DNA of 41,759 bases, from NCBI GenBank assembly GCA_017467305.1, contig JAFTSM010000063.1:1-41759 (forward strand), written 5' to 3'. The stretch comes from Candidatus Gastranaerophilales bacterium. Its GTDB lineage: Bacteria; Cyanobacteriota; Vampirovibrionia; Gastranaerophilales; Gastranaerophilaceae. Every line of letters starts with the position of its first letter. Position 1 is the stretch's first letter. This document shows positions 2,229 through 41,516 of the stretch, piece after piece. Below the pieces are notes generated by a model, which saw nothing but the letters and a program-made list of their open reading frames with translations, ran no database searches and had not been told where the DNA came from. The translations under genes and the position numbers were made by a program.

Positions 2229-2811
2229 AATAAATATAACCAACTAAATTTAAATCAATACTACCAAACATAAGTCTAATACGACCATTATCGATTATTT
2301 CAGCATTACAAAAAGTGATAGTATCTTGTTCTAAATCTTGTTTTGTTTCTTTGGCTTCAACTGTCAATACGACTTTTGAGCCTTGTGATAAATCAAGGAC
2401 ATAAGTATTTTCACCAATTCTTCTACAAGATAGTTTATAATAACCAGGGTTTATATATATACCATCTTCACTATATGCACGCATGGGAATCATAACAGTG
2501 TGTGTTTGAGTTAAAGCATCATCCGGTGACTGAGATTGAGTAAATTCTTTAAGATGTTCAAAATCAGATGATGGAGATAATGGTTGAACTTCTTTTCTGA
2601 TTCTACGTTGTTTTCTTGATAAATTTCTTTCTTTTAACTTATCAATAACTTCGTGCATTTTTTTATCAGAAACTGGTTTTTGATTTTCAAAACCAGTATC
2701 AAAAACAGAAGAATTTTCACCCCATTCATTATTAGATGATGAGTCATCTTCCGCAAAAACAACACCACTAATTAGCATCAAAATCAATATTAATAAAACA
2801 TTTTTAATCAT
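2221..2811 (-). CDS. Secreted protein of unknown function
   Basis: 196 aa with an N-terminal signal peptide (MIKNVLLILILMLISGVVFA, cleavage probably after VFA). The mature protein has an acidic/Ser/Asn-rich start, a basic segment around residues 60-75 and a beta-rich C-terminal half. No family was recognised. The gene is convergent with nifS and overlaps it by 8 nt. There is no Shine-Dalgarno upstream. Instead TATTAT lies 6 nt before the ATG, suggesting a leaderless mRNA. Confidence 0.75.
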   Translation of the reverse strand: MIKNVLLILILMLISGVVFAEDDSSSNNEWGENSSVFDTGFENQKPVSDKKMHEVIDKLKERNLSRKQRRIRKEVQPLSPSSDFEHLKEFTQSQSPDDALTQTHTVMIPMRAYSEDGIYINPGYYKLSCRRIGENTYVLDLSQGSKVVLTVEAKETKQDLEQDTITFCNAEIIDNGRIRLMFGSIDLNLVGYIYFK

Positions 2812-2817
2812 AGTTAT

Positions 2818-2823
2818 ATAATA
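2818..2823 (-). promoter_or_regulatory. -10 box placed for a leaderless start
   Basis: TATTAT (minus strand) is separated by exactly 6 nt (ATAACT) from the ATG at 2811. No ribosome binding site is present, so transcription would begin at or next to the start codon. Confidence 0.45.
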
Positions 2824-2926
2824 CTTATTTTTTTCTTAATGTAAAGAAAAAAGTTCAATTGTATATACTCATTTAAATAACAATATGATATTATTATAAG
2901 AGGTAGATTGTTAGGAAGGCTTTATT

Positions 2927-3589
2927 ATGACTAATGAGAATCAAGTAAGAAAAATGAGACCTAAAAGAAAAATAAAAAAGAAAAAAGAAGCCCCCAAAGT
3001 AACCTCATACAAGAATTGTATACTTATGATTGTTTCACTTATACTTTTTCTTTATGCAGGCTTTATTGGGTTATATCCAGCCATTTTAACTTGGACATTT
3101 AATTATGATAAATTTAGCGACAGCGTATATAAAACAACAGCTCTAGTTACAAAAGTGCATAAAATGGAATTTTCAATGACCCCAACATTTGACATGATAA
3201 TAACAGCAAATAATTGGGTTTCAACACATTTTGATAAACAAAATGCCTTTGAAGCAACAGAAATAAAAGTAAAAACAACACCATTTGCTATTTTTACTAA
3301 AGACTTCCAAATTAAATCAATGGAAATTACTGGTGCAAAATTGTGGGAACAATTTCTTCCTTCTGGAGAAAACAAATTAGCATACATTCCAAAATCTTTC
3401 TACGCAAAACCATTTGGCGCAAAAGTTATAACAATAAGACCTTCGGCTGTGGACTTTAACAGTTTTACAATAGTTCATCAAAGATCAAGCGGAGTAAAAG
3501 AAGAATATATCAGAAAAAAATCTTACTCACTTTACGAAGTAAAAAATTTCTTAATGAACAAAAATATAGTCGATGTCGTTATAAAATAG
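2927..3589 (+). CDS. Single-pass membrane protein of unknown function
   Basis: 220 aa. A very basic cytoplasmic N-terminus (Lys/Arg-rich, residues 10-25) precedes one transmembrane helix (about 32-58). The C-terminal domain is then predicted to be outside the membrane. The segment with TTPFAIFTKDFQIKSMEI resembles the beta-rich start of AsmA-like proteins, but the match is too weak to name a family. It has a good ribosome binding site (GGAAGG) and is followed 12 nt later by the small secreted gene at 3602, so the two probably form an operon. Confidence 0.75.
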   Translation: MTNENQVRKMRPKRKIKKKKEAPKVTSYKNCILMIVSLILFLYAGFIGLYPAILTWTFNYDKFSDSVYKTTALVTKVHKMEFSMTPTFDMIITANNWVSTHFDKQNAFEATEIKVKTTPFAIFTKDFQIKSMEITGAKLWEQFLPSGENKLAYIPKSFYAKPFGAKVITIRPSAVDFNSFTIVHQRSSGVKEEYIRKKSYSLYEVKNFLMNKNIVDVVIK

Positions 3590-3601
3590 TGGAGACATGA
3601 T

Positions 3602-3889
3602 ATGAAAAAAACATTTTTTACATTAACTATATTTGCCTATGTACTTTTTTCAATGGTTCAAAGTGCTAATGCATACGTTGAAGAAGTTTCAACAAAACCA
3701 TATGTTGATAAATTCAAACCAAGTACTGGTGTAAAAATACAAGAATCAAATCTTGCTGCAAGAATGGAAAATGCAACAAGAGAGGCTGCGTATGGCGGTG
3801 CAAAAGAAGAAAAACAATGGGCAAGAAAAAGAACAACACCAAGAAATAATGAAAATAACTCAAACGTTAGAAGTTATAAATGGTTTTAA
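3602..3889 (+). CDS. Small secreted basic protein
   Basis: 95 aa with a signal peptide (about residues 1-24, ending near ANA) and a short, charged, Gly/Asn/Arg-containing mature part with no cysteine. No family was recognised. Its ribosome binding site is GGAG, a few bases after the end of the preceding gene. It is first in a run of three small exported, lysine-rich proteins (3602, 3911, 4410). Confidence 0.7.
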   Translation: MKKTFFTLTIFAYVLFSMVQSANAYVEEVSTKPYVDKFKPSTGVKIQESNLAARMENATREAAYGGAKEEKQWARKRTTPRNNENNSNVRSYKWF

Positions 3890-3910
3890 TAGGCAAGTAA
3901 GGAGAGAAAA

Positions 3911-4330
3911 ATGAAAAAATCACTTTTAACATTAGTATTAACATGTGTAGTAGCACTTTCTTATTGTGGCGTAGCAAATGCTTTAGACTTAAACATAACA
4001 AAACCAACAGTATCTGTGGATACAAAAAAAGAAGAATCAGCTTTTTCTAAAAAAATGAAAGAATGGGAACAAGCACAAGCAGAGGCTAAAGCAAAACAAG
4101 AAGCTAAACAAAAAGAGAATGAAAAGAAAAAAGAAGCTTTAAAAAATGATATAGAAAAAGCAAAAGCAGATGCTAAGGCAAAACAAGAAGCAAACAAAAA
4201 AGCTATTGAAAAAGCTCAAACAGATGCAAAAAAACAAGCTGAAGCAAATAAAAAAGCAGCAAAAGAAAGACAAGAACAAAGAAAAGAAGCTTTTAATAAT
4301 TTCAAAAATTCATTCAAAACTACAAAATAA
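3911..4330 (+). CDS. Secreted Lys/Ala/Glu-rich coiled-coil protein
   Basis: 139 aa with a signal peptide (residues 1-24, ending VANA). From about residue 45 onward the sequence is almost entirely K, A, E and Q in degenerate KAKAEAKQEA-type repeats, predicting a long continuous helix or coiled coil, like the TolA domain II type of sequence. A strong AAGGAGAG ribosome binding site precedes the ATG. A terminator follows directly (4331-4356). A periplasmic spacer or cell-wall-binding role is plausible but not shown. Confidence 0.7.
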   Translation: MKKSLLTLVLTCVVALSYCGVANALDLNITKPTVSVDTKKEESAFSKKMKEWEQAQAEAKAKQEAKQKENEKKKEALKNDIEKAKADAKAKQEANKKAIEKAQTDAKKQAEANKKAAKERQEQRKEAFNNFKNSFKTTK

Positions 4331-4356
4331 AAAAAGAGCCGAAAGGCTCTTTTTAT
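4331..4356 (+). terminator. Rho-independent terminator
   Basis: AAGAGCC and GGCTCTT form a stem around a GAAA tetraloop, followed by a T run. It ends the 2927-4330 transcript. Confidence 0.8.
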
Positions 4357-4409
4357 TGACATAAATGAAAAAAAATATTTTAATAAAGAAAAAGAGAGGG
4401 GATTTTAAA

Positions 4410-4997
4410 ATGAAAAAGGCATTACTATTAATAACAATTATTTCATTATGTATAGTACAACAAGCAAGTATTGCAGCAGATGTCGAAACAAAAAAAGAGC
4501 CCTCTACATCATCTAAAATAGTAGAATCAACAAAAGAAGCAACAGATAAAACTGTAGAAGCTACGAAAAAGGGCTATCAAAAGACCGTTGAAGCAACAAA
4601 AAAAGGCTACAAGAAAACAGTTGAAGCTACAAAAAAAGGGTACAAAAAAACAGTAGAAGCAACAAAAGACTTTGCAGATAAAACAACAAACGAAACAAAA
4701 GAAGTAATAGAAACTTTATCATCTGATAAAGAAATCACAGTAGAAAGTTTAGAAAAAGAAGCAGCAATCAAAACACTTAAAAATGAAAGAAATGAATTAA
4801 AAGCTGCATACAATTCTAGAATAAAAGACATAAAAGCAAAGATAAAAGCGACAGAAAAAGCTACAAACCTTACAGATGTTCAAAAGCAACACCAAATACA
4901 CGATTTAAACAAGCAGAAAAAAGAGCTTGAATTAGAAAGAAATACAACAATAGAGAAATACAACGCTCGTATAAAAGAAAAGAAAAATTCAAAATAA
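4410..4997 (+). CDS. Secreted protein with six tandem 11-residue repeats
   Basis: 195 aa from the ATG at 4410, chosen because GAGAGGGGAT lies just upstream and the signal peptide (MKKALLLITIISLCIVQQAS) starts there; an upstream in-frame ATG at 4365 has no ribosome binding site. Residues 36-101 are six back-to-back 11-mers with consensus K-T-V-E-A-T-K-K-G-Y-K, the middle ones nearly identical and the outer ones degenerate. A basic coiled coil fills the rest. 11-mer amphipathic repeats occur in LEA-type and apolipoprotein-like helices. Whether this protein is related to either is unknown. It forms its own transcript between two terminators. Confidence 0.75.
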   Translation: MKKALLLITIISLCIVQQASIAADVETKKEPSTSSKIVESTKEATDKTVEATKKGYQKTVEATKKGYKKTVEATKKGYKKTVEATKDFADKTTNETKEVIETLSSDKEITVESLEKEAAIKTLKNERNELKAAYNSRIKDIKAKIKATEKATNLTDVQKQHQIHDLNKQKKELELERNTTIEKYNARIKEKKNSK

Positions 4998-5024
4998 AGA
5001 AGAGTCCATTTGGACTCTTCTTTT
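4998..5024 (+). terminator. Rho-independent terminator
   Basis: AAGAAGAGTCC and GGACTCTTCTT form an 11-bp stem with an ATTT loop and a T run. It overlaps the stop codon of the convergent gene at 5023 and could work in both directions. Confidence 0.8.
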
Positions 5025-6162
5025 ATAAATCATTATCATTATAAAGAATATATCCTTCAATATATGCATCAACAACGGATTTTGAAAACTTTTTTGCAGT
5101 TGACCAGTAAGAAGTATGAGCACCTAAAAAAGTTCTGCGGCTTTTTGCTGTTGATTTACTATATAAAAAACCTTTATTAGGCATTATATCGATATCAATA
5201 CGTTCCTTCAAATCTTTATAAGATATATTTTTTGTTGTTGGATACCCAAGTGGGTCATCAGCGTAATTAACAGTTAACCAAAACATGTTATTTTCGAGAA
5301 TATATTTATACAGCAACTTATTATAATAAGTTAAAGGATAGTTTGGATTAGAAATATCAGAGTAAAATAAAACTAATGGACTTGCAAAATTAATAACACC
5401 TTTCAGAGTGTCTTTAGGTATACAAGATTCACAAGTATATTTATCTAACTCCAAATAAGTATTTTTAGTAGTAGGTGACTCAATAGGAACCAATTTCCCG
5501 TCAGCACTATAAACGGCAAGACCAGAATCAATTAACGCATCTATACAAGTATTCTTTTTCTTATTATCTATAACAAAACGCAAAAATTCAGAAGAAACAT
5601 CCGTTTGGTTATAATAATCAACGACATCAATACTAGGCAACTTATTGAACATGTACTCATAAGTAACAAAAGCACCAGCACTATAACCTAATAGAACAAC
5701 TGATTTACCTTTATTGTAATTGTCTAAAACTTGTTTATGTAAATCTGAAATAACAGGATGCATATTCCTATAGTGAGAAACCCAAATAGCATCGTGCAAG
5801 CAATGAGCAAGTAAAGAACGAACCGTTTGCGCAAGTTTGGGGCTAAACATTTTTGTGAAAGTTAATTCAATATTCAATGATTGAATTTGCTCATTACTTC
5901 TATCTCCCCAAAAGAAAATTTCAGGTTTTTCAGAAATTTTATAAATATTATCTTCAAAAAATTTATTTTGAATAAATGGAGAAGAATTAAATGAATTTAG
6001 CATTTCTGGGTGCATTTTATCAACACCAGAGAAAAACCACTTTGTCATTTTTTTATCGTTGTTATTTGAGCCATTTATATAAATAAATTGAATTTCTTCA
6101 GAAGAAAAACAATTCTGTGAACAAAAAATAAATGCTAGTAAAAATAATATAAATTTTTTCAT
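5023..6162 (-). CDS. Secreted alpha/beta-hydrolase-like protein
   Basis: 379 aa with a signal peptide (about 1-20). A G-x-S-x-G nucleophile elbow is present as GYSAG (159-163, Ser161) after a hydrophobic strand (SVVLL), typical of lipases and esterases. A candidate catalytic histidine is His349 in GAHTSYW. The catalytic acid cannot be assigned. The early FIYINGSNNN resembles the oxyanion strand region of the fold. Substrate unknown. No ribosome binding site is seen. TAAAAT lies 6 nt before the ATG. Confidence 0.75.
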   Translation of the reverse strand: MKKFILFLLAFIFCSQNCFSSEEIQFIYINGSNNNDKKMTKWFFSGVDKMHPEMLNSFNSSPFIQNKFFEDNIYKISEKPEIFFWGDRSNEQIQSLNIELTFTKMFSPKLAQTVRSLLAHCLHDAIWVSHYRNMHPVISDLHKQVLDNYNKGKSVVLLGYSAGAFVTYEYMFNKLPSIDVVDYYNQTDVSSEFLRFVIDNKKKNTCIDALIDSGLAVYSADGKLVPIESPTTKNTYLELDKYTCESCIPKDTLKGVINFASPLVLFYSDISNPNYPLTYYNKLLYKYILENNMFWLTVNYADDPLGYPTTKNISYKDLKERIDIDIMPNKGFLYSKSTAKSRRTFLGAHTSYWSTAKKFSKSVVDAYIEGYILYNDNDL

Positions 6163-6168
6163 ACATTA

Positions 6169-6174
6169 ATTTTA
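6169..6174 (-). promoter_or_regulatory. -10 box placed for a leaderless start
   Basis: TAAAAT (minus strand), directly preceded by TG, lies exactly 6 nt (TAATGT) before the ATG at 6162. No Shine-Dalgarno is present. Confidence 0.45.
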
Positions 6175-6255
6175 CAATAAAAATTATTTTGTAACATTTT
6201 AAATAAAAATCAAATTTATAGTATTATATAAAAAGGTAATAGGTAGGGTTATATC

Positions 6256-7533: not shown

Positions 7534-7539
7534 AAAGCA

Positions 7540-8010: not shown

Positions 8011-8087
8011 CTTTTCCCCTAAATACTACAATATACACAAATATAAAAAACAAACATATTTTTTTTTGCTAGTTTTGCTGTATTTTT

Positions 8088-8954
8088 TTAGTGATTTATT
8101 GAAAAATAAATTTCTTTTAACCTTTTTTTACTAATATGAGTATATAGTTGGGTAGTAGAAACATCACTATGTCCCAAAAGTTCTTGTACAACTCTCAAAT
8201 CAGCACCATTTTCTAATAAATGTGTTGCAAATGAATGCCTAATTGTATGTGGAGAAATGTTTTTATTAATATTTTTACCAATAGAATTTATAAAAACATA
8301 TACGTCTTGTCTCGTTAATTTTTTTCCATTTTCTTTTATAAAACAATATTTTGAATTTAAATTAAATTTTTTTATTATATATTCTCTTTCACTCAAATAT
8401 TTTTTGATTGACTGACAAGCTTTATTCCCAATAGGTACTATTCTTTCTTTTGAACCTTTCCCAATACATCTAATATATTTTGCGTTTAAATCAATATTAG
8501 ATAATTGTATCTCTGTCAATTCAGAAACACGCAATCCCGCAGCATATAATAATTCAAGTATTGCTGCATTTAAAAGAGATAAATTCGATTCTAATAAACT
8601 CGTAATTTCTTTCATTGATAATACTTTAGGTAATCGTTTTGGTAATTTGGGTTGTTCTAACACTAAAGCTGGATTATGTTGAATAATTTCATTTATACAC
8701 AACCAATTAAAAAAACCTTTTATAGATGCTATTTCTCTTGTGATACTCCTCGGAGTGTATCTTTTATCATATAAACTCTTAATATACATATTTAGATGTA
8801 TACGCATGATTTGAGAATAATCTTCAACACCTTGCGAAACAAAAAAATCAGATAGTGAATATAAATCACTACGATACGCAAGCAAAGTATTAACAGATAA
8901 ACCACGCTCAATTTCTAAATATTCAATATACTGAGAAATATAATGAATTAACAT
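8088..8954 (-). CDS. xerD: XerC/XerD-type tyrosine recombinase
   Basis: 288 aa site-specific recombinase of the kind that resolves chromosome dimers at dif. It has an N-terminal SAM-like core-binding domain (about 1-90) and a complete catalytic set: Arg142, Lys166, His236-x2-Arg239, His262 and Tyr271. The LGHSDVSTTQLYTH end is closer to XerD than XerC. The length and the absence of neighbouring phage genes favour a housekeeping Xer over a mobile integrase, although the XerC/D choice is uncertain. No ribosome binding site is visible. An extended -10 box sits 6 nt before the ATG. Confidence 0.88.
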   Translation of the reverse strand: MLIHYISQYIEYLEIERGLSVNTLLAYRSDLYSLSDFFVSQGVEDYSQIMRIHLNMYIKSLYDKRYTPRSITREIASIKGFFNWLCINEIIQHNPALVLEQPKLPKRLPKVLSMKEITSLLESNLSLLNAAILELLYAAGLRVSELTEIQLSNIDLNAKYIRCIGKGSKERIVPIGNKACQSIKKYLSEREYIIKKFNLNSKYCFIKENGKKLTRQDVYVFINSIGKNINKNISPHTIRHSFATHLLENGADLRVVQELLGHSDVSTTQLYTHISKKRLKEIYFSINH

Positions 8955-8960
8955 AAGATA

Positions 8961-8969
8961 ATATTAGCA
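8961..8969 (-). promoter_or_regulatory. Extended -10 box placed for a leaderless xer start
   Basis: TGCTAATAT (TGn plus hexamer, minus strand) is followed by 6 nt (TATCTT) and the ATG at 8954. The short gap to the next gene upstream leaves little room for any other promoter. Confidence 0.5.
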
Positions 8970-8989
8970 TTTTTAATACAAAAAGTTAA

Positions 8990-10816: not shown

Positions 10817-10911
10817 GAAACCTTACTCCTTTATATAATAATTAAAACAAATAAAAATTTTAATTGCTTAATACTAAAAATGAGCAATAGCTTTTATTAC
10901 AAAAGTTCACA

Positions 10912-10938
10912 CAAAAAGACAGCCATTTCGGCTGTCTC
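10912..10938 (-). terminator. Rho-independent terminator of the gene at 10949
   Basis: On the minus strand GACAGCC and GGCTGTC form a stem around GAAAT, followed by TTTTTGTG. It lies 11 nt past the stop codon of the 10949-11692 gene. Confidence 0.8.
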
Positions 10939-10948
10939 AAAATTTATA

Positions 10949-13703: not shown

Positions 13704-13709
13704 CATAAA

Positions 13710-13989: not shown

Positions 13990-15582
13990 CTACACATTAT
14001 AAAAAACAATTGTATCATTCAGTTGTATTTTTGTTGTTCCATTAGGAACAAAATACTCCTCACCACGCTTAATTAAAGCAATAAGGTGATTTTCTGGCAA
14101 ACTAATATCTTTAATTTCGAAATCAAGCCATTCATGATTTTTATCAATAAACGTTTCACATAGACTAATATCAACATCAGATTCTGTATGAGTTGAACCA
14201 ATAAGTATTTCATCATTTTCTAAAATCTGAGTAATTCCTTTAGGAACAATTCTCTTTCCATCTCTTGTAATTGTTAAAATCAATGCTTTTCCGTTGAAAT
14301 GAATATCCTTAATACATTGACCAGCCCAAGGATGTGTACGTCCGATAACAACTGTATTCAATGCGATTGCAGATTCTTGTTGAAAATCATTAAAGGTTTT
14401 TCTAACGTCAGTAAATTTATCAATCATATTTGCTTTTTTAGCAATAAAAGGAAGTAAAGAACCTTGAATAGATACTGATAACAATGCAACTACAAAGACA
14501 ATATGAAATAAATCATACACAAGATTAGAACTTTCTGAAACAACCAATATTGCAAATACAATAGAAGCAGCACCTCTCAAACCAGCACTGGATATAAAGA
14601 AAAATTGGTTCCATTTTATTTTAAAAGGAAGAAGAGTTAAAAATACAGCAAAAGGTCTTGCTACGAACGTTAAAAATAAAGTTATCAATATTGCTGGCAA
14701 TATAATTTCTGGTATTTTGTGTGGAAAAGACAAAAAACCAATCAAGAAGAATATAATAACTTGGCATAAAGCTGTTATACCATCAAAGAAATGCATCAAG
14801 TTCAATTTATTTTTTATTTGGCTATTTCCCAAAATAATACCAGTTATATATACACTTAAATAACCATTACCTTGTATTAAATCAGCAACTGAAAAAGATA
14901 AAAGGGCAACAGCAACAATAAAAATAGTATCAGTACCTTCCGTCAAGAGTTTTGTCTTTTTAAGTAAAAAAAGTGCACCATATGCAATTAAAACGCCTAA
15001 CAACAATCCAAAAAATATTTGTTTAAAAAGTAATGGAATGGTAGAAACAGTACTAGAACCCTTTAGCATAGTAATACCTAATATTGTTAGAATATAAGCA
15101 AATGGGTCATTACTACCGCTTTCCATTTCTAAAAGTGATGCCGTATTATATTTAAGATTTAATCTGCGTGAACGCAAAATTGAAAATACAGAAGCTGCAT
15201 CAGTAGAACTTATAACAGAACCAATTAAAAAACTTTCAATAAAAGAAAGTTTCAATACAAAATAACAAAATATGGTACAAAATCCAGCTGTTAAAACAGT
15301 TCCAAAAGAAGACAATAAAATAGCTTGGGCATTGACTTTTACATCACTAATTTTTTTTGTGCAAAAACCGCCATAAAATATAATGAATAATAGTCCAATA
15401 GAACATAATTTAGAAGTTAAATCATAATCATCAAAAGATATTTTCAATATACCGTCAGATCCAAAAAGTACACCTAAAAACATAAAAAATACGAGTGAAG
15501 GCATACCAAGCTTACTTGAAAACTTGTTTGTTATAATACAAGAAAATATAACTATTGCACAAAATAATATAAGAATCGACAT
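13990..15582 (-). CDS. K+/H+ antiporter, CvrA/NhaP2-like, with TrkA-C domain
   Basis: 530 aa. About twelve membrane helices of the monovalent cation:proton antiporter type fill residues 1-385, with the conserved acidic core SSTDAASVFSIL and ESGSNDPFAY (about 127-163). A cytoplasmic TrkA-C-like regulatory domain follows (about 400-480: IKDIHFNGKALIL...ILENDEILIGS) and a second degenerate one ends the protein. The likely role is K+ (or Na+) efflux in exchange for protons. No ribosome binding site is seen. An extended -10 box lies 6 nt before the ATG. Ion specificity is inferred from the family. Confidence 0.88.
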   Translation of the reverse strand: MSILILFCAIVIFSCIITNKFSSKLGMPSLVFFMFLGVLFGSDGILKISFDDYDLTSKLCSIGLLFIIFYGGFCTKKISDVKVNAQAILLSSFGTVLTAGFCTIFCYFVLKLSFIESFLIGSVISSTDAASVFSILRSRRLNLKYNTASLLEMESGSNDPFAYILTILGITMLKGSSTVSTIPLLFKQIFFGLLLGVLIAYGALFLLKKTKLLTEGTDTIFIVAVALLSFSVADLIQGNGYLSVYITGIILGNSQIKNKLNLMHFFDGITALCQVIIFFLIGFLSFPHKIPEIILPAILITLFLTFVARPFAVFLTLLPFKIKWNQFFFISSAGLRGAASIVFAILVVSESSNLVYDLFHIVFVVALLSVSIQGSLLPFIAKKANMIDKFTDVRKTFNDFQQESAIALNTVVIGRTHPWAGQCIKDIHFNGKALILTITRDGKRIVPKGITQILENDEILIGSTHTESDVDISLCETFIDKNHEWLDFEIKDISLPENHLIALIKRGEEYFVPNGTTKIQLNDTIVFYNV

Positions 15583-15588: not shown

Positions 15589-15597
15589 ATCATAACA
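15589..15597 (-). promoter_or_regulatory. Extended -10 box placed for a leaderless antiporter start
   Basis: TGTTATGAT (TGn plus TATGAT, minus strand) is followed by 6 nt (AGTCGC) and the ATG at 15582. No Shine-Dalgarno is present. Confidence 0.5.
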
Positions 15598-15636: not shown

Positions 15637-16011
15637 CTATCTATATGCACACAATGCATTAAATATACTTTTATTAATTGTATTAGGCATTACGGCTAAA
15701 TAATGGGTATTTTCTTTTTGTTCAGTGTCAATCAATCTTCCTTTTCTGTCATAATATGCTACTTTAAGATTTGATAATCTATTTTCTGAACAAAAAGCAG
15801 TACTATGATACAAAACATAAGAAACTTTTTTTAGATTTCTTCTATCATATTGTCCATAATTATAATCTTTAACCCAACCTGTAACAGATGTTCTTGCTTT
15901 TACAATAGATTCATAATCAACTTCTAATCCGTCATTTTGAGGTTCAAAATAAACAGCATAAGCTGAAACTGAAAAAAGTAACGATAAAAATAATACAAAT
16001 AATCTTTTCAT
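15637..16011 (-). CDS. Small secreted protein, possibly surface-adhesin protein E-like
   Basis: 124 aa with a signal peptide (about 1-19, VSAYA). The mature domain has two cysteines (in FCSEN and ALCAY) and the pattern W-x-K-x-Y...YYDRKGRLIDT...PNTINKSIFNALC, which resembles the small Surface_Adh_E family where two Cys form a disulfide. The assignment is tentative. No ribosome binding site. TATAAT is 6 nt before the ATG. Confidence 0.65.
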   Translation of the reverse strand: MKRLFVLFLSLLFSVSAYAVYFEPQNDGLEVDYESIVKARTSVTGWVKDYNYGQYDRRNLKKVSYVLYHSTAFCSENRLSNLKVAYYDRKGRLIDTEQKENTHYLAVMPNTINKSIFNALCAYR

Positions 16012-16017: not shown

Positions 16018-16026
16018 ATTATATCA
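16018..16026 (-). promoter_or_regulatory. Extended -10 box placed for a leaderless start
   Basis: TGATATAAT (perfect TATAAT with TGn) is followed by 6 nt (ATTCAT) and the ATG at 16011. Confidence 0.55.
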
Positions 16027-19932: not shown

Positions 19933-20631
19933 TGGTTTTTTCTTAACTAATCCATTTTTTCTTGGGTAAGAAAAAGGAACTTCTTTTTCTTTTTTTATCA
20001 CAATCAGACAACGTTTATTTTCTTCATCAATAGGCAAAGAATATTCAATAATATCAACAACTTTCGAATTAAGTATTTTCAACGCATTTTTTGCATTTTC
20101 TATTTCTTCTTGAGCTTTAATTGACTTATATGCTACAAAATATCCACCAACTTTAAGATATGGAATTGCATATTCAACAATCATTCTTAACTCGGCCATT
20201 GCGCGAGAAGTTACAATATCAAATGAACTCTTTGAAGAGAGAGGCAAATCTTCAACCCTTGAACAAATTGGATTGATATTATTTAGGTTAAATTTTTCTT
20301 TCACTTCTTTTATGAAATTAATTTTTTTATTAATAGAATCTAAAGGTATAACATCAATATTTTCATAAATAAATGAAATCGGAACTGACGGAAATCCACC
20401 ACCAGCACCAATATCTAAAAGTTTTACTTGATTTGTTTTGCAGTATTTTTTATAAAACAAGTTAAAAGCCAAACTATCAAAAATATGTTTTTCAAACAAA
20501 AATTTGACATCATTATTACTAATCAAATTAACTTTATCATTATATTCTTTAAAAAAAGAAGAAAATAAATTAAGTTCATTAACGTTCTGTTCAGATAAAA
20601 CTAATGATAATTTTTCAAGTTGTTTGTACAT
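19927..20631 (-). CDS. rsmG: 16S rRNA (guanine-527-N7) methyltransferase
   Basis: 234 aa SAM-dependent methyltransferase of the RsmG/GidB family. The SAM motif LLDIGAGGGFPSVPISF is at about 71-87, followed by the acidic strand end and VTSRAMAEL, both family hallmarks. Its ATG shares one base with the stop of the upstream ATPase-TPR gene (TAATG), so the two are translationally coupled. Confidence 0.95.
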   Translation of the reverse strand: MYKQLEKLSLVLSEQNVNELNLFSSFFKEYNDKVNLISNNDVKFLFEKHIFDSLAFNLFYKKYCKTNQVKLLDIGAGGGFPSVPISFIYENIDVIPLDSINKKINFIKEVKEKFNLNNINPICSRVEDLPLSSKSSFDIVTSRAMAELRMIVEYAIPYLKVGGYFVAYKSIKAQEEIENAKNALKILNSKVVDIIEYSLPIDEENKRCLIVIKKEKEVPFSYPRKNGLVKKKPL

Positions 20632-23156
20632 TATTTTTTATTCTTCAATTCTAGCATTATACGTTTAAATTCAGATTCACCAACTAATGTCTTAATTTTA
20701 TTTATCTGCATATTCACTTGAGAATGAACATCTTCTTCTGACTGTTGTGGTATAAACTTTAAAGCAAGAAGATAAGATTTCAAGGATTGCTTATAATCAC
20801 CATTATATAGATGATAATCTCCCAATTCAACATATACTGGAACTATAGCTGTTCTATCTTCCATTTTCTTTGCTGCAGCAACAGCTTTTAATAAGTAATC
20901 ATGCGTTTTATTTTTATCTTCTTTTTTAACAAGACTCGCTAACTTTAAATAAGAGAAACACAATCCATCATAATTATTTTGCGATTCGTCAGCTTTAATT
21001 GATAACTCGTAATACATTTTTGCTACAGTTGGATTTTTATTATCAAGAGAAATTGCTGCTAAATTAGAGTATGATGATGCCAAATACGGGTTAACAGAAG
21101 CATCACTTGAAGTCTGAATACATCTCAAGTAATTTTTCATAGCCATTTCAGTATTATTAGAATCATCAAATAATAGCGCATATTTAAAATAACATTCGCA
21201 TAATAAAGAAGGATTGGCTATTTTTTCTGCCATAGTTAATGCCATTTTTACATACATTAAGGTAGATGCAACATCCATATTATTTTCTTCTAACTCTGAT
21301 AAATAAAGATAAACTCTAACAGCCATTTCATTAGAAACAGAATTAGAAGAATTTAAAATTCGCTTATAAATTTCTCTTGCTTTATCAAACTTATAAACTT
21401 CTGAATACATTTGTGCGATATTCAATAAAACTGAATTTGCTAAATCAGGTAATTTTTCCAAATATAATTGATAAACTTTTTCGTATAATTTAACAGCTTC
21501 ATCAATATCTTGAATTTTTCTATAACAAAAAGCTAGTTTTGCATATATAATTGGTTCCTTATTAGTAAATTGAGAATCACTTTTGTATGATAATGCTTTT
21601 TTATAATACATTATTGCATCTGCAAAATTAAAAGAATTTTCGCATTTTTCCGCAATAGTGATATAATCATCCAAATTTGTAGGAACCAAATCTTCTACAT
21701 TTATAGATTTATCATCACTCGCAGTTGGAATAGTTTCTAAAATACTAGTAACTTCATCTGACGTTTCTTTTGCAGAATTAATTAATGTATGTTCATCAAT
21801 TGGTAATGGAGATAATGATATTTTAGTTTGTCTAGGTTTTATATTTTTAGTATATCTTTTTGAAGAAGAATTTTGTTTTTTATCCATAGACGCTTCATAA
21901 CCACTCGACTTTGAGTAGCTAACATAAGTCAAACCTTGCTTTTCTGAAAGTCTTGGTCTACCAGATTGTTCCATTTCTTCTTGTATTAACTTGATTTTTT
22001 TGGTATGATGAGATATTTCTTGTCTCATTGTAAGGCGAGATAAAAATAGCTCTCTATCAAAAGGTTTTAATGGTAATTCAGCTTCATAAACATCCAACAA
22101 ATATTTATGAACTTTAAGTTTAGTCTCATTATTAACTATTTTTATATATTCAGATTTAAAATAATCTTTTAAATAATAAAGACCAAATTTCTCTGCTATA
22201 ACTCTTTTTTGAAGAAGAAATTCTATTTCATCTTCAGTAGCAAACCTTTGATTTATAAGGAAATTAGCACTAACACCGTGTCTTATAATCGAAAGCAATA
22301 ATAACAATTTTGTAAATTTTTCAGAAGAAATAGATAAGACTTTAGAAACTAAGAACTCTAAAAAATTTTTAGATGATTTTTTATACTCAGAAGCAAAAAT
22401 AGTGAGAGAAATATCTAAAACGTTCATCAAAAGAACAGACAATTCTAACAATAAGAAATGACCTCTAGTTATTTTATAAAGCTCTTCACATTCATACTTT
22501 GTACCAGTAATGTTGTTAATATTTAGATATTCATACATTTCATCTTTTGAAAGTGATTTTAAAGCACAAGAAACAGAAGAATCCATAGATATTAAATCTG
22601 TTTGTTTAAAGCTCCTTGAACAAATAATTATCTTTACTTTTGCAAAATGAGATAGATAGTTAATAAAATCTAAAATATCTTTTTGAGTATCTTTACTTCT
22701 CATATTTATTTCAAAAGAATCAAATATAAAAAGCATTGGAACATCACAATATTTTATATAGGCATTAATTTTGTCAGAAAATACATTTGATTCTATTTTG
22801 GGTAAAGAAATCTTTTTCTCACTATGATATATCGAAAAATCTTTAAAAATTGAAAGTAAAACATCATCAAGATTAATTGCTTCTTGATAAGAATTACGAA
22901 AAATTAAAACATTATCATTAATAAAATCTAAAAAGCAGTCGGCAACATAAGTTTTGCCAGCCCCCATAAATCCATTCAAAATAAATAAATTATCTGCAGA
23001 ATTTAAAAATCTCAAAATCTGAGAAAGGGCATCAATATTATGTTTTAGAATAAAACTAGTTTCTCTTTCTACAAGAAAACTTTCCAAGGTCGAATTATCA
23101 GACCTTAAATCGTGAACAATAGATTTGAATATATCCTTTATAAAACAATATTCCAT
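20631..23156 (-). CDS. STAND/AAA-like ATPase with TPR repeats
   Basis: 841 aa. An N-terminal P-loop NTPase has Walker A GFMGAGKT (62-69), Walker B MLFIFDSFE and a following KIIICSRS, the ORC/STAND layout. A winged-helix-like region follows (about 280-370), then a Ser/Lys-rich linker (about 395-450) and at least eight TPR-type helical pairs (about 475-820). Proteins of this plan act as signal-sensing switches or scaffolds, and the partner is unknown. It is coupled to rsmG by a 1-nt overlap. No ribosome binding site. TATTAT lies 7 nt before the ATG. Confidence 0.8.
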   Translation of the reverse strand: MEYCFIKDIFKSIVHDLRSDNSTLESFLVERETSFILKHNIDALSQILRFLNSADNLFILNGFMGAGKTYVADCFLDFINDNVLIFRNSYQEAINLDDVLLSIFKDFSIYHSEKKISLPKIESNVFSDKINAYIKYCDVPMLFIFDSFEINMRSKDTQKDILDFINYLSHFAKVKIIICSRSFKQTDLISMDSSVSCALKSLSKDEMYEYLNINNITGTKYECEELYKITRGHFLLLELSVLLMNVLDISLTIFASEYKKSSKNFLEFLVSKVLSISSEKFTKLLLLLSIIRHGVSANFLINQRFATEDEIEFLLQKRVIAEKFGLYYLKDYFKSEYIKIVNNETKLKVHKYLLDVYEAELPLKPFDRELFLSRLTMRQEISHHTKKIKLIQEEMEQSGRPRLSEKQGLTYVSYSKSSGYEASMDKKQNSSSKRYTKNIKPRQTKISLSPLPIDEHTLINSAKETSDEVTSILETIPTASDDKSINVEDLVPTNLDDYITIAEKCENSFNFADAIMYYKKALSYKSDSQFTNKEPIIYAKLAFCYRKIQDIDEAVKLYEKVYQLYLEKLPDLANSVLLNIAQMYSEVYKFDKAREIYKRILNSSNSVSNEMAVRVYLYLSELEENNMDVASTLMYVKMALTMAEKIANPSLLCECYFKYALLFDDSNNTEMAMKNYLRCIQTSSDASVNPYLASSYSNLAAISLDNKNPTVAKMYYELSIKADESQNNYDGLCFSYLKLASLVKKEDKNKTHDYLLKAVAAAKKMEDRTAIVPVYVELGDYHLYNGDYKQSLKSYLLALKFIPQQSEEDVHSQVNMQINKIKTLVGESEFKRIMLELKNKK

Positions 23157-23163: not shown

Positions 23164-23169
23164 ATAATA
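23164..23169 (-). promoter_or_regulatory. -10 box placed for a near-leaderless start
   Basis: TATTAT (minus strand) lies 7 nt before the ATG at 23156. No Shine-Dalgarno is present. Confidence 0.35.
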
Positions 23170-23206: not shown

Positions 23207-23548
23207 CTACCACTTTTTAAATATAAAAAATACAGCAAGAATTATAAAAAAGAAACCAACTAAATAGTTCCACCTAAACTCTTCTTTTAAGTACATTATA
23301 GAAAAGACACTAAATACAATAAGAGTAATAACCTCTTGAATAGTTTTCAACTGTGCAGCATTAAAATACTCATGCCCTATCCTATTAGCAGGCACTTGAA
23401 AACAATATTCTAAGAGTGCAATTCCCCAACTAACAAAAATAACAATCCATAAAGCAGTACTTTTAAATTTTAAATGCCCATACCAAGCAAACGTCATAAA
23501 AACGTTTGAAATTGTTAACAAAAGTATTGGTAAAAACTGTCTAAACAT
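23207..23548 (-). CDS. DMT-family small membrane protein (DUF486-like)
   Basis: 113 aa with four predicted membrane helices. The segments NVFMTFAWYGHLK, WGIALLEYCFQVPANRIG and LKTIQEVITLIVFSVFS identify the DUF486 family of short drug/metabolite-transporter-like proteins; function unknown. The ATG at 23548 is preferred over a TTG at 23566, because TATAAT (23555-23560) lies inside the longer version. Confidence 0.85.
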   Translation of the reverse strand: MFRQFLPILLLTISNVFMTFAWYGHLKFKSTALWIVIFVSWGIALLEYCFQVPANRIGHEYFNAAQLKTIQEVITLIVFSVFSIMYLKEEFRWNYLVGFFFIILAVFFIFKKW

Positions 23549-23554: not shown

Positions 23555-23560
23555 ATTATA
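23555..23560 (-). promoter_or_regulatory. -10 box placed for a leaderless start
   Basis: Perfect TATAAT (in TACTATAAT) lies exactly 6 nt (TTCTTT) before the ATG at 23548. No ribosome binding site is present. Confidence 0.5.
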
Positions 23561-31113: not shown

Positions 31114-31151
31114 GTGTTGTTTTCCAAAAACAAAAAAGATATTTAGAAGCT

Positions 31152-33677: not shown

Positions 33678-33678
33678 A

Positions 33679-34731: not shown

Positions 34732-34784
34732 AGAACTTACTCTTTTCTCTACAAAAATTTAAAAACAAGAAAAAAATATTTTTG

Positions 34785-35321: not shown

Positions 35322-35325
35322 TATG

Positions 35326-36510: not shown

Positions 36511-36518
36511 TTTATCAC

Positions 36519-37364: not shown

Positions 37365-37379
37365 TTGAATTACCTCTTT

Positions 37380-39170
37380 TTAGAAATGAGTATGCTTATT
37401 TGTTGATAATAGTTCTTTATCTTTTTGTAATTTTGCGACTTTTTGAATTTCATCGTAAATTTCTTCTGGATTAAATGGAGTGCCGTCATATTTTAAAAAC
37501 TCTAGCACTTCCATACCACGATTAATATGGGTACATCTTTCAACTATTGTAGATTTAAATTGTGCATTATAATTTGCTTCTACAACAATTACTACATCTT
37601 TATTTTTAATGAAGTTTTTAATCCAATCAGTTGGGAGTGGATAAAGTGTTCTAGGATATAATGCTTGAACTTTTATTCCTTGTTTTTGTGCCATATCAAT
37701 AGCTTCAAAAACAGCACCAGAAGTTGAACCCCAGCTTATAATACCAATTGACGCATCTTCACTGCCGTAGGTTTTAGCTTTTGAAAATTGACCAGTTGCT
37801 GTTTCTAATTTTCTAAAACGTTTTTCTGTCATTTTTCTATGAACATCAGCTGCAGGAGTTGGTGCATTTGCTTCAGTGTGTTCTAAACCTGTTATAACGT
37901 GTTCTCCATATTTATCACCAACAGAAGTTATAGGTGAAATTCCACTAGGTGTATCTTCGAATCTATTATAGATATCACCTTCTTTTAATTGCGGTTTATG
38001 CCTATTAACGATTTTTAGATTATCTAAGTCAATCAAATCAACACATTCTCTGCGTGGACCTAATGAAGCATCAGAAAGAATAATAACTGGAACTTGATAC
38101 TGTTCTGCAAAGTTAAAAGCATTTATTGTTTGATAGAAACAATCTTCAACATTCATTGGTGCTAATACAATTTTAGGACAATCTCCATGAGTACCATAAA
38201 TAGCTGCACACAAGTCACTTTGCTCCGTTTTTGTTGGCATGCCAGTACTTGGTCCACATCTTTGAACATCAGCAATAACAACTGGAAGTTCTGACATTGA
38301 CGCAAGACCAATTGCTTCTTGCATTAGTGATAATCCAGGACCAGATGTCGCAGTCATTGATTTTACACCAGCAAATGAAGCGCCAAGTGCGTAATTTATA
38401 GCAGCTATTTCATCTTCACATTGGACCATTTTTCCACCAAATTTAGGAAGTTCTTTTGCAAGCCATTCCATAATTTCTGTAGCCGGAGTAATCGGATAAC
38501 CAGAAAAGAATCGACAACCTGCTGCAAGTGCGGCCAAACCAATAGCTTCATTACCAGACATAATTAACTTGGCACCAGATATTTGCATATTTACTTTGTC
38601 ATAAATATCTTTGCGAACTAATTTTTTACAAGCATATTCAAAACCAATATTTAATGCTTTCTTATTCACATCTATAATTTCTTGAGATTTTAATTTATAA
38701 CGTAATTCAATATCACTTAAAATCTGTTCTTCTAAGTTGAGATTTTTCAATAATCCAACAACAACACCAAGTGCTACCATATTTCTAGAACGTTCAGAAT
38801 TAAGCTCTTTTGCAAGTGTTGTTAATGGTAAACCATAAATAACAATATCTTCACGTGATTCTTTTAATTCTGTAACTAATTCAGAGTCGTAAATAAGAAC
38901 TCCATTTGAAGAAATCTTATTTAACCCTTCATAAATAGTGGTTTCATCTAAACAGACAAGAATATCCGTCTCTCCAGTTGCTGTTAGTCTTCTATTTTCA
39001 CTAATCCTTAACGTGTAGTAGCACTTTCCGTCACCACGAATTTCAGAAGGAAATGCTCTAAAGGTTGTAACATAATAACCTTTTCTTGCTGTAGCATATG
39101 ACAAAATATCGCCAGCACTAATAATACCTTGACCAGAGGTACCAGAAATTTTCACCTTTAAGTCTTTCAT
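37380..39170 (-). CDS. korA: 2-oxoacid:ferredoxin oxidoreductase, gamma-alpha fusion subunit
   Basis: 596 aa. Residues 1-190 are the gamma domain (SGTSGQGIISAGDILSYA). From about 195 the alpha domain follows, with FFSGYPITPATEIMEWLA, TSGPGLSLM and SDASLGPRREC, and the C-terminal domain II (about 460-590). Such a fusion of gamma and alpha is common in KorA. There is no dedicated delta (ferredoxin) subunit gene. First gene of the operon korA-korB-VKOR-queH. Ribosome binding site AGGAGG. Confidence 0.92.
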   Translation of the reverse strand: MKDLKVKISGTSGQGIISAGDILSYATARKGYYVTTFRAFPSEIRGDGKCYYTLRISENRRLTATGETDILVCLDETTIYEGLNKISSNGVLIYDSELVTELKESREDIVIYGLPLTTLAKELNSERSRNMVALGVVVGLLKNLNLEEQILSDIELRYKLKSQEIIDVNKKALNIGFEYACKKLVRKDIYDKVNMQISGAKLIMSGNEAIGLAALAAGCRFFSGYPITPATEIMEWLAKELPKFGGKMVQCEDEIAAINYALGASFAGVKSMTATSGPGLSLMQEAIGLASMSELPVVIADVQRCGPSTGMPTKTEQSDLCAAIYGTHGDCPKIVLAPMNVEDCFYQTINAFNFAEQYQVPVIILSDASLGPRRECVDLIDLDNLKIVNRHKPQLKEGDIYNRFEDTPSGISPITSVGDKYGEHVITGLEHTEANAPTPAADVHRKMTEKRFRKLETATGQFSKAKTYGSEDASIGIISWGSTSGAVFEAIDMAQKQGIKVQALYPRTLYPLPTDWIKNFIKNKDVVIVVEANYNAQFKSTIVERCTHINRGMEVLEFLKYDGTPFNPEEIYDEIQKVAKLQKDKELLSTNKHTHF

Positions 39171-39286
39171 ATAGAAAAACCCTCCTAATAGTAATAATAT
39201 TTTATTACTTTTTTAGAGAAATAAAAGCTTTGTTAAAATATTGTAATCTTAAAATGAATAAAAAAATACGTACCTATATTATTTAC

Positions 39287-39296
39287 TACATTTGTA
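39287..39296. promoter_or_regulatory. Operator-like palindrome 1 (TACA-N2-TGTA)
   Basis: TACATTTGTA, within ACTACA-TT-TGTAGT. It matches the TACAnnTGTA form of CopY/BlaI/MecI-family operators. It lies just downstream of a TATATT/TATTAT -10 candidate (about 39275-39283), a position suited to repression. Confidence 0.4.
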
Positions 39297-39324
39297 GTTT
39301 AAAAAGTCTTAATTTTGGGAATAT

Positions 39325-39334
39325 TACAATTGTA
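39325..39334. promoter_or_regulatory. Operator-like palindrome 2 (TACA-N2-TGTA)
   Basis: TACAATTGTA, a perfect palindrome 38 bp downstream of the first copy. It abuts the ribosome binding site (GGAG) of the HNH gene at 39344. Confidence 0.4.
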
Positions 39335-39343
39335 GGAGTTAAT

Positions 39344-39868
39344 ATGAAAAAGGTTCTTTTACTTGACATCCATAATCATCCTATCAACATTTGTAGCTGG
39401 AAACGTGCCTTAATTCTTCTAATGAAGGGGAAGGCAGAGAACGCTAGAAAATTAAATGATATTGAAAGCATGATTAGGGTGGAGAACCAATTAATTCCAC
39501 GAGTCATTAAGTTAACTTATGAATTGGCAGTTCCTTATAAAGAACTGCCTTTTTGTAGGGAAAATATTCTTGTAAGAGATGAATTTGTTTGCCAATATTG
39601 TGGCAAAAAATTCCCTGCAAGTGAATTAACTCTTGACCATGTTTTCCCTAAATCAAGATTAGGTCCAGATATTTGGGAGAATATAGTTGCTTGCTGTAAA
39701 GAATGTAATCAAAAGAAAGCGGATAGAACACCAAAAGAAGCAAGAATGAAGTTACTTCGTAGACCATATCGTCCAAAAGATTATTTATTATTTGAACTTA
39801 AAAAATATCCAGAAAGTATTGTAAGATATTGGCGTGCATTCTTTAATATTTCGCCATTACAAGCATAA
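39344..39868 (+). CDS. HNH endonuclease family protein, cyanobacterial type
   Basis: 174 aa from the ATG at 39344, chosen because GGAG precedes it and MKKVLLLDIHNHPINICSW starts the known domain. An upstream in-frame ATG at 39230 would cover the operators. The HNH zinc finger is CQYCGKKF...LDHVFPKSRLG...NIVACCKECNQKK, with Cys pairs and the catalytic His of LDHV. Many cyanobacteria carry such proteins next to restriction or repair functions; the role here is unknown. It overlaps the end of the gene at 39857 by 12 nt. Confidence 0.85.
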   Translation: MKKVLLLDIHNHPINICSWKRALILLMKGKAENARKLNDIESMIRVENQLIPRVIKLTYELAVPYKELPFCRENILVRDEFVCQYCGKKFPASELTLDHVFPKSRLGPDIWENIVACCKECNQKKADRTPKEARMKLLRRPYRPKDYLLFELKKYPESIVRYWRAFFNISPLQA

Positions 39869-40657
39869 ATGGGGATACATCATTCTTGAGCATCTTCCTA
39901 ACTCTTTTATTTCGTTTTCAGAAAGTTTCTCTTCATCTTTGAAAACGATTCTATTTCTTATATAGAAATCATTTTTATCTAAAAATTCACCTGTTTCTTC
40001 AAAGTGGTCAATTCTAAATAAAGAAAAGCTATCATTAAAATCTGATTTGTTTTTGTTTTCATCAATAAATCTTGCGTATTTATCTTTTGCACCAGATATT
40101 GAATCAGCAAATCCCATCCAACTATCTAGAACAATCATATCTTTTTCTTTTGGATTTTCTTTTCCCATTGCACTAATTACGATAGTATGGTCTAAGTCGT
40201 AATTTTTAGCGAATATTACTTTATTAGTTTTTTTATGAACGTACTCAGTTTTTTGCTCTAAGCTTACTCTTTTTGCATCATTAATACCATTTGCTGCAAG
40301 AGTTGCCATTGTTACAATAGAGGCTTCATGACAATTACCTATTTTAGTTTTCTTAATTCTTTCTAATGGTCTTATAAATGGTGGTTCTACAAAATAGCTT
40401 TTTTTAGAACTTTCATCATCAACTATCCTACCAGCATTTATTTTATAAACTATTCTTTGAGCAATTTGAATAGTTCTAACTTGCTTGGGTGTATTTTGTC
40501 CTTTTCCATTTAAACAGTAAAACTCCTGCAAATACGAAGGGCTGAACATAGGGAAATTAGCTGTTGCTTTACGTTGAATATCATCAGCTTTTCTAATTTC
40601 TTTTTTCTTTGCAGAGAATATTGGTCTAGTGTAATTTGTTTGTAATGAGATTTTCAT
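39857..40657 (-). CDS. Lineage-specific protein with a papain-like C-H-D triad
   Basis: 266 aa starting MKISLQTNYTRPIFSAKKKE (lineage N-terminal motif). The core shows GNCHEAS (Cys109), LDHTIVI (His157) and VLDSW (Asp178), the order and spacing of a papain/transglutaminase-type triad as in several effector-like cysteine proteases (GNCxE ... DHxxVV ... xVxDPW). Target unknown; no signal peptide. The start has no clear ribosome binding site and lies 53 nt from the divergent gene at 40710. Confidence 0.7.
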   Translation of the reverse strand: MKISLQTNYTRPIFSAKKKEIRKADDIQRKATANFPMFSPSYLQEFYCLNGKGQNTPKQVRTIQIAQRIVYKINAGRIVDDESSKKSYFVEPPFIRPLERIKKTKIGNCHEASIVTMATLAANGINDAKRVSLEQKTEYVHKKTNKVIFAKNYDLDHTIVISAMGKENPKEKDMIVLDSWMGFADSISGAKDKYARFIDENKNKSDFNDSFSLFRIDHFEETGEFLDKNDFYIRNRIVFKDEEKLSENEIKELGRCSRMMYPHLCL

Positions 40658-40697
40658 ATTCTATTTAAAATCTCTAAAAATATTTTTTGCTTTTATG

Positions 40698-40703
40698 TAT
40701 AAT
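40698..40703 (+). promoter_or_regulatory. -10 box placed for a leaderless start
   Basis: Perfect TATAAT lies exactly 6 nt (CATTGT) before the ATG at 40710. An in-frame ATG at 40695 would be upstream of this box. Confidence 0.5.
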
Positions 40704-40709
40704 CATTGT

Positions 40710-41516
40710 ATGAAAAGACTTTGTATATTTGCACATTATGATAAAAATAATTTAATAGATGATTATATCATCTATTATTTACGTGAATTAAAAAAGTCAT
40801 TTAATAAAATCATTTTTGTTTCTGATAGTGACTTATCTAAAAAAGAAACAGATAAAATTATAGATTTAGTTGATTACATACAAGCGTTTAACCACGGTGA
40901 ATATGACTGGGGATCATATAAATATGGTTATTTTATTGCAAAAGAAAATTACTTATTACAAGGCATTGATGAAGTTTTATTTTGCAATGATTCTGTTTAT
41001 GGACCAGTCTTTCAGCTAGAACCTATATTTGAAAAAATGTCTAATGATAATGATTGTGATTTTTGGGGAATGTATGAAAATCAAGACGGCATTATAAAAG
41101 GAGATAAAGCAAATCATCTTCAATCTTGGTTTCTATTACTTAAGAGAAATGTTGTAGATTCGGACTTATTTGATGATTTTATTTGTTCTGTAAAACATTT
41201 AGAAGATAAAAACGATATTATTCAAAAATATGAAATAAATTTTACTCAAAGAATGTCTTGTTGCTTTAAATATAAAGCTCTTTATACTTCAGAAAATGGT
41301 AATGCTGTAACACAAGCCACACCAATCTTATTAGAAAAAGGTTTTCCTTTTATAAAAACTGTTGTGACACGAAAATATAATATGCCATTTCAATTAGTTC
41401 CTAAAGAACTTGTAAGACTAATTATGAAACATGCAAAAAGAATAGGTAGAGTACCTATAATACCGAGATTTTTTAAAACTCTTGCTTGGAAAAGCAAAAT
41501 GAAAAAGTTTACATAA
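40710..41516 (+). CDS. RgpF-like (rhamnan synthesis F) glycan protein
   Basis: 268 aa. KRLCIFAHYDKNNLIDDYI, a repeated-strand region, HGEYDWGSYKYG and DEVLFCNDSVYGP (about residues 88-100) are typical of the rhamnan-synthesis F family found in cell wall and O-antigen polysaccharide loci. The usual context of sugar genes is missing here. The ATG at 40710 is preferred because the -10 box lies 6 nt before it. Confidence 0.8.
   Translation: MKRLCIFAHYDKNNLIDDYIIYYLRELKKSFNKIIFVSDSDLSKKETDKIIDLVDYIQAFNHGEYDWGSYKYGYFIAKENYLLQGIDEVLFCNDSVYGPVFQLEPIFEKMSNDNDCDFWGMYENQDGIIKGDKANHLQSWFLLLKRNVVDSDLFDDFICSVKHLEDKNDIIQKYEINFTQRMSCCFKYKALYTSENGNAVTQATPILLEKGFPFIKTVVTRKYNMPFQLVPKELVRLIMKHAKRIGRVPIIPRFFKTLAWKSKMKKFT

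What the first reader, a model, noticed from the sequence alone, without database searches (positions are those of the whole stretch)
2809..40712. Many genes show a -10 box exactly 6 nt before ATG and no Shine-Dalgarno: predicted leaderless mRNAs
Genes starting at 2811, 6162, 8954, 15582, 16011, 23548 and 40710 have TATTAT, TAAAAT, TAATAT, TATGAT, TATAAT, TATAAT and TATAAT followed by exactly 6 nt and the ATG. The gene at 23156 has TATTAT with 7 nt. Three carry an upstream TGn. None has a ribosome binding site, while most other genes in the window have good ones. A -10 box 6-7 nt upstream puts the start of transcription on the ATG, as in the leaderless promoters of Deinococcus and actinobacteria. 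The dichotomy suggests two classes of translation initiation in this lineage. Caveat: the genome is AT-rich.
Basis: partly seen in the sequence, partly recalled or inferred. Interest (0 to 1): 0.75.

Follow-up and report, generated by a model that had tools for sequence, protein, structure and literature searches.

The report
Leaderless genes in gut Melainabacteria
In a gut relative of the cyanobacteria, about one gene in twenty seems to have its promoter placed so that the messenger RNA starts right at the first codon with no ribosome-binding leader, a known arrangement for which I found no earlier report in this lineage.

Summary
All eight sites are as described. In an 871-kb sample of the genome (612 genes), a TATAAT-like box ends exactly 6 nt before ATG in 31 of 177 genes without a Shine-Dalgarno (SD) sequence, against a mean of 5.4 at other spacings, and in 0 of 360 genes with one. 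Features not used for selection agree: a TTGACA-like element exactly 17 nt upstream of the box, and T before ATG in 29 of 31. The XerC-like gene of the window keeps the box at 6 nt in 27 of 28 congeners while its flanks diverge. A lexA-like gene elsewhere in the genome has the same layout in nine relatives from eight other genera (one at 7 nt). The pattern is enriched in 52 of 52 genomes sampled from the family, and in 1 of 61 from other classes of the phylum. Best reading: a minority class (about 5% of genes) of leaderless mRNAs from ordinary sigma-70 promoters in a Gastranaerophilales lineage. The mechanism is known; the lineage seems unreported. No RNA data were available. The gene at 23156 is doubtful, and 15582 is SD-led in its closest relatives.

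The parts
8961..8966 (-). TAATAT box, 6 nt before ATG (8954) of a XerC-like integrase gene (8088-8954); TGn before it; TTAACT at 8984-8989 as -35
   Evidence: Pfam Phage_integrase and Phage_int_SAM_1; box at 6 nt in 27 of 28 other same-genus orthologs, the 28th at 7 nt. Best-supported case in the window.
23555..23560 (-). TATAAT box, 6 nt before ATG (23548) of a DMT_6 family gene (23207-23548)
   Evidence: Pfam DMT_6; box at 6 nt in 15 of 26 other same-genus orthologs, at 7 nt in 6, neither in 5
15589..15594 (-). TATGAT box with TGn, 6 nt before ATG (15582) of a Na+/H+ exchanger gene (13990-15582)
   Evidence: the three closest orthologs with the start in view (70-72% identity) have a strong SD instead
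16018..16023 (-). TATAAT box with TGn, 6 nt before ATG (16011) of an Adhesin_E-domain gene (15637-16011)
   Evidence: orthologs not examined
2818..2823 (-). TATTAT box, 6 nt before ATG (2811) of a gene without a Pfam or NCBIfam match (2221-2811)
   Evidence: orthologs not examined
6169..6174 (-). TAAAAT box, 6 nt before ATG (6162) of a gene without a Pfam or NCBIfam match (5023-6162)
   Evidence: orthologs not examined
40698..40703 (+). TATAAT box, 6 nt before ATG (40710) of an RgpF-domain gene (40710-41516)
   Evidence: a longer ORF starts at 40695; orthologs not examined
23164..23169 (-). TATTAT box, 7 nt before ATG (23156) of a TPR protein gene (20631-23156); doubtful
   Evidence: in 25 other same-genus orthologs with an ATG in view: 8 at 6 nt, 5 at 7 nt, 12 neither

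Best explanation
These are housekeeping (sigma-70) promoters set directly against the coding sequence. RNA polymerase recognises a TTGACA-like -35 element and/or TGn together with the -10 box and starts on the A of ATG, 7 nt after the box. The mRNA then begins with a 5'-terminal AUG, without leader or SD, and is probably loaded by the 70S ribosome. About 5% of genes, more often than others first in their transcription unit, use this route; most of the rest are SD-led. Shown: box position, lack of SD, -35 spacing, T(-1), conservation in some genes, spread in the family. Inferred: the actual transcript end and the mode of ribosome loading.
For: 31 of 177 SD-poor genes have the box at 6 nt against a mean of 5.4 elsewhere; 0 of 360 SD genes. 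TTGACA match highest at a 17-nt spacer (2.79 of 6 against 1.70, sd 0.19, at other offsets; 61 pooled genes); T before ATG in 29 of 31 against 67 of 146; TGn in 7 of 31 against 10 of 146; first in unit 24 of 30 against 186 of 335 SD genes. Same in a family relative, G063: 20 of 71 against 2.1. XerC-like gene: box, TG and T(-1) 90-93% identical pairwise against 38-53% in the flanks. lexA-like gene: box at 6 nt in 8 of 9 relatives read, 7 nt in the ninth. Family-wide enrichment.
Against: No RNA data. Start calls are mechanical, and some were shown wrong by alignment. G145, a congener, shows a weaker peak: 10 of 94 at 6 nt and 10 at 7 nt against 3.4. The leaderless state is often not conserved: 4 of 9 own cases are not leaderless in G145, and 2 of 3 in G063 by the strict rule. 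First-in-unit excess is not significant in G063 and G145 taken alone. Four of 29 XerC-gene upstream regions have duplex energies below -3. In G028, of another family, the box is enriched but T(-1) and the -35 are not.
Confidence: 0.85

Rival explanations
1. Chance: in a 29% GC genome TATAAT-like strings are common, and the reader picked those that fell near ATGs.
For: About 5 of the 31 calls in the sample are expected by chance, so a sixth of any such list is likely false. One-mismatch boxes without gene context show little excess.
Against: Sharp peak at one spacing, none in SD genes, shuffles; in-phase 9-nt control and reversed-pattern control across the family; unselected -35 and T(-1).
Confidence: 0.04
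2. The AT-rich element acts in translation (for example as an S1 or A/U-rich enhancer in a leadered mRNA), not as a promoter.
For: PMC5397173 (passages) notes that A/T-rich biases upstream of non-SD starts may reflect S1 binding.
Against: An enhancer would not need a spacing fixed to 1 nt, nor a TTGACA-like element exactly 17 nt further up.
Confidence: 0.05
3. Promoters are real, but translation starts at a later in-frame codon, so the mRNAs have a short leader.
For: Start calls are mechanical; 23548 and 40710 have alternative starts.
Against: It would not explain an in-frame ATG exactly at +1. Orthologs of the XerC-like gene align from residue 1 or 2 in all 29 same-genus hits listed, and lexA-like relatives read here from residue 1 or 2.
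Confidence: 0.05

Closest known systems
TA-like-signal leaderless genes of bacteria (Zheng et al. 2011, PMC3160421; passages and section 7 seen)
   Same: TANNNT box about 12 bp before the start, no SD, held to be a sigma-70 -10 box with the transcript starting at or next to the start codon; low-GC genomes show TAtAAT and TG
   Different: That survey lists no Cyanobacteria among the groups with leaderless genes. Here a -35 at 17 nt is also visible, and the fraction is low (about 5%).
-10 motif adjacent to ORFs in Deinococcus-Thermus (PMC12340547; passages and section 11 seen)
   Same: -10 box directly before the ORF, no RBS; promoter function shown there by mutation and reporters
   Different: About 30% of ORFs there; about 5% here. 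That paper also scanned bacteria at large in a supplementary figure that I could not see.
Leaderless lexA of Mycobacterium tuberculosis (PMC2897130; passages seen)
   Same: lexA transcription and translation start at the same base
   Different: Experimentally shown there. Here predicted, in a lexA-like gene outside the window, with a palindrome overlapping the -10 box.

Membership tests
Leaderless (TA-led) bacterial genes | TANNNT box about 12 bp upstream, beyond shuffled expectation | tested here: met
   TAnnnT at 6 nt in 40 of 177 against mean 9.6; boxes with at most 1 mismatch 31 against shuffle maximum 14
Leaderless (TA-led) bacterial genes | No Shine-Dalgarno sequence | tested here: met
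   the class was searched among SD-poor genes; 0 of 360 SD genes have the box at 6 nt
Leaderless (TA-led) bacterial genes | Mostly single or operon-proximal genes | tested here: met
   24 of 30 against 186 of 335 SD genes (p = 0.011); same direction but not significant in G063 (15 of 19) and G145 (8 of 9)
Leaderless (TA-led) bacterial genes | Transcript 5' end on the start codon | not testable with these tools
   no RNA data; T(-1)A(+1) and -35/-10 spacing are indirect
Leaderless (TA-led) bacterial genes | Translation by the leaderless (70S) route | not testable with these tools
   needs biochemistry
Sigma-70 promoters | TTGACA-like -35 about 17 nt before the -10 box | tested here: met
   best offset gives a 17-nt spacer; at least 4 of 6 matches in 19 of 61 against 21 of 281
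Deinococcus-like dominant leaderless usage | About 30% of ORFs carry the box | tested here: not met
   excess over background about 4-5% at 6 and 7 nt in own sample, about 7% in G063

The most novel reading that the evidence does not exclude
The non-photosynthetic gut sisters of cyanobacteria maintain a selected leaderless gene class with a near-obligatory T(-1) that fixes the transcript end on AUG. It is not seen in the other classes of the phylum, and genes move between SD-led and leaderless states within one genus. The class includes recombination and damage-response genes (XerC-like, uvrB, an autorepressed lexA), so that these could be translated by undissociated 70S ribosomes when normal initiation is impaired.
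Probability: 0.25. Interest if true: 0.65.

Novelty: new member of a known kind. Interest (0 to 1): 0.46.

Why it matters
It adds a lineage to the map of leaderless mRNAs and offers a comparison (enriched across a gut family, not in sampled genomes of other classes of the phylum, switching within a genus) for how genes gain and lose leaders. In practice, gene finders that rely on SD may misplace starts in these gut bacteria. The conserved promoters of the XerC-like and lexA-like genes are natural test constructs.

Tried and rejected
Chance in an AT-rich genome: rejected for the class by positional, shuffle, in-phase (9 nt) and reversed-pattern controls. GTG or TTG leaderless starts: no peak. 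A first SD score by longest string match misfiled some genes and was replaced by duplex energy (against 26, 27). A first ortholog comparison by 5'-most ATG found little conservation (1 of 4 in G063; 2 of 9 in G145). It was redone at the aligned start: 5 of 9 in G145 and 1 of 3 in G063. There, of 87 reciprocal pairs each, 73 (G145) and 49 (G063) were kept; pairs whose alignment began after residue 6 were dropped. XerC-like gene in other genera of the family: 12 of 29 with a box at 6 nt, two of these at an ATG 12 codons upstream, and 17 without (the 29 loci were cut from 56 family genomes other than the own), so the exact spacing is not fixed family-wide. A shared operator of leaderless genes: AGACN4GTCT occurs 5 times in 871 kb and near called starts only at the lexA-like gene and between recA and its neighbour. 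Enrichment of repair functions was not tested against a background.
Full report
What was checked. The window (29.7% GC) is contig 36 of a 1.85-Mb, 75-contig assembly, 89% complete. The four best relatives of its DusB protein (53-58% identity) are three MAGs labelled Candidatus Gastranaerophilales and one labelled Heliobacteriaceae. I therefore place it in the gut Melainabacteria; this is an inference (taxonomy of the order). Anti-SD duplex energies are +1.4 to -1.5 for the eight; 20 of 30 other genes called in the window have -4.4 or lower.

Genome test. Genes were called with a simple codon-score method and the 5'-most ATG. Of 612 genes, 360 have an SD (E -4.4 or lower) and 177 do not (E above -3). 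Among the 177, boxes with at most one mismatch to TATAAT number 31 at 6 nt, 3 at 5 nt, 11 at 7 nt, and 5.4 on average (maximum 11) elsewhere (p = 4e-15). Exact TATAAT: 14 at 6 nt against 0.74. Among the 360 SD genes: none at 6 nt. Without gene calling, exact TATAAT-k-ATG followed by at least 100 open codons peaks at k = 6 (21) and 7 (11) against 0 to 8; with one mismatch allowed the excess is slight; GTG and TTG show no peak. Excess over background at 6 and 7 nt is about 5% of genes.

Unselected features. In the 31 genes T precedes ATG in 29 (67 of 146 other SD-poor genes, p = 5e-7), and TGn precedes the box in 7 (10 of 146, p = 0.014). Pooling 61 such genes of the own genome, G063 and G145, the match to TTGACA is highest at offset -35, a 17-nt spacer: 2.79 of 6 against 1.70 (sd 0.19) at other offsets. 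At least four of six match in 19 of 61, against 21 of 281. The genes are first in a unit in 24 of 30 cases, against 186 of 335 SD genes (p = 0.011); G063 and G145 show the same direction without significance (all). These are the marks expected of a sigma-70 promoter whose start is the A of ATG.

Conservation. XerC-like gene at 8954 (Pfam Phage_integrase): in 29 same-genus upstream regions (own included; the one of 30 genomes with only a paralog was left out) the box is at 6 nt in 28 and at 7 nt in one. TG at -15/-14 plus the box, and T(-1), are 90 and 93% identical pairwise, while flanks are 38 to 53%; TTAAC begins at -35 in 20 of 29; four of the 29 have duplex energies below -3. In other genera of the family 12 of 29 examined have the box at 6 nt and 17 do not. 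DMT_6 gene at 23548: 15 of 26 others at 6 nt, 6 at 7, 5 neither. TPR gene at 23156: of 25 others with an ATG in view, 8 at 6 nt, 5 at 7, 12 neither, so this one is doubtful. Na+/H+ exchanger at 15582: the three closest orthologs with the start in view (70-72% identity) have a strong SD instead, and so has one at 52%; two at 36% have a weak TANNNT at 6 nt. So a gene can change between the two states within the genus. With aligned starts, 5 of 9 leaderless genes of the own genome are leaderless in the congener G145, against 1 of 64 others (p = 5e-5); in G063 it is 1 of 3 against 3 of 46 (p = 0.23). The genes at 2811, 6162, 16011 and 40710 were not followed in relatives.

Spread. TATAAT-6-ATG outnumbers the in-phase control TATAAT-9-ATG in 60 of 60 family relatives (60 to 150 against 30 to 95 sites); own genome 79 against 58; the 56 other genomes of the class are mixed, for example 83 against 37 in G028, 80 against 83 in G026 and 11 against 18 in G030. 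With T before ATG, 52 of 52 family genomes (own included) have at least twice the reversed-pattern control (4193 against 931 sites in all). In 61 genomes of other classes of the phylum it is 425 against 578, and one of them (G156, 19 against 2) has a twofold excess with at least 10 sites; many of these genomes have few sites of either kind, so the test is weak there. Three f12 genomes of the class, not in those sums, have 21 against 13, 28 against 10 and 22 against 14. In the same order, G012, G018 and G014 (families f2 and f4) show no excess; a 130-kb sample of G012 has 0 of 10 SD-poor genes with the box. Gene-anchored samples: G063 20 of 71 against 2.1; G145 10 of 94 against 3.4; G028 9 of 55 against 1.07, but without T(-1) or a clear -35. 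Sixteen genomes reached through Firmicutes-labelled loci give 350 against 263, a few of them near or above twofold.

lexA. Among the 31 leaderless calls is a LexA-like protein (NCBIfam lexA 108.7 bits, just under the 110.95 cut-off) with TTGACA-17-TATAAT-6-ATG and the palindrome TATAGACAnnTGTCTATA across spacer and box. Of 40 family genomes searched (own included) 12 had a match. Nine relatives from eight other genera were read at the start; two weaker, partial matches were not. Eight have the box at 6 nt and one at 7 nt, and all nine have a palindrome there, with core AGACN4GTCT (six), GTACN4GTAC (two) or GAACN4GTTC (one). The only other TAGACN4GTCTA in the sample lies between recA and a divergent gene, which suggests that it is the LexA operator. 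recA itself is SD-led. Other leaderless calls include UvrB, a UvrD-like helicase, a serine recombinase, NFACT, MnmG/GidA and NAD synthase; no enrichment test was made.

Literature. Zheng et al. 2011 (PMC3160421; passages and section 7) define the TA-like signal, list no Cyanobacteria among the groups with leaderless genes and say that many cyanobacterial genomes use neither mode. [quoted passage not shown] PMC6091082 (passages) keeps 19 leaderless transcripts in a photosynthetic cyanobacterium. PMC12340547 (passages and section 11) shows promoter function of such boxes in Deinococcus and mentions a domain-wide scan whose figure I could not see. PMC2897130 (passages) shows leaderless lexA in M. 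tuberculosis. Searches for leaderless with Melainabacteria, with Gastranaerophilales, and with uncultured plus metagenome-assembled plus Shine-Dalgarno returned no paper; only open PMC papers are held. That leaderless mRNAs can be loaded by 70S ribosomes and prefer AUG is recalled, the first also cited in PMC12340547.

Verdict. The class is real and best explained as leaderless mRNA from ordinary promoters: a known kind, in a lineage for which I found no report. Transcript ends remain unmeasured.

Noticed in passing
L010:5030-5100 and L137:15892-15905 (own genome, outside the window): A palindrome TAGACN4GTCTA overlaps the leaderless promoter of a lexA-like gene and occurs once more between recA and a divergent gene: a likely SOS operator. 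Its core varies among relatives (AGACN4GTCT, GTACN4GTAC, GAACN4GTTC), and the lexA-like gene was found in 12 of 40 family genomes.
   Followed up: partly
window 13990-15582: Na+/H+ exchanger gene: leaderless-type start here, strong SD in the three closest orthologs with the start in view, a natural switch of initiation mode.
   Followed up: partly
L008:10149-10171 (before uvrB): A perfect inverted repeat TTAGTATTA-N5-TAATACTAA overlaps the leaderless promoter of uvrB; found once in the 871-kb sample.
   Followed up: no
   Followed up: no
upstream of window 23156 and its orthologs L253-L281: A string like TGTTTAACAGAT recurs about 35 to 45 nt before the TPR gene start in many orthologs; role unknown.
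   Followed up: no
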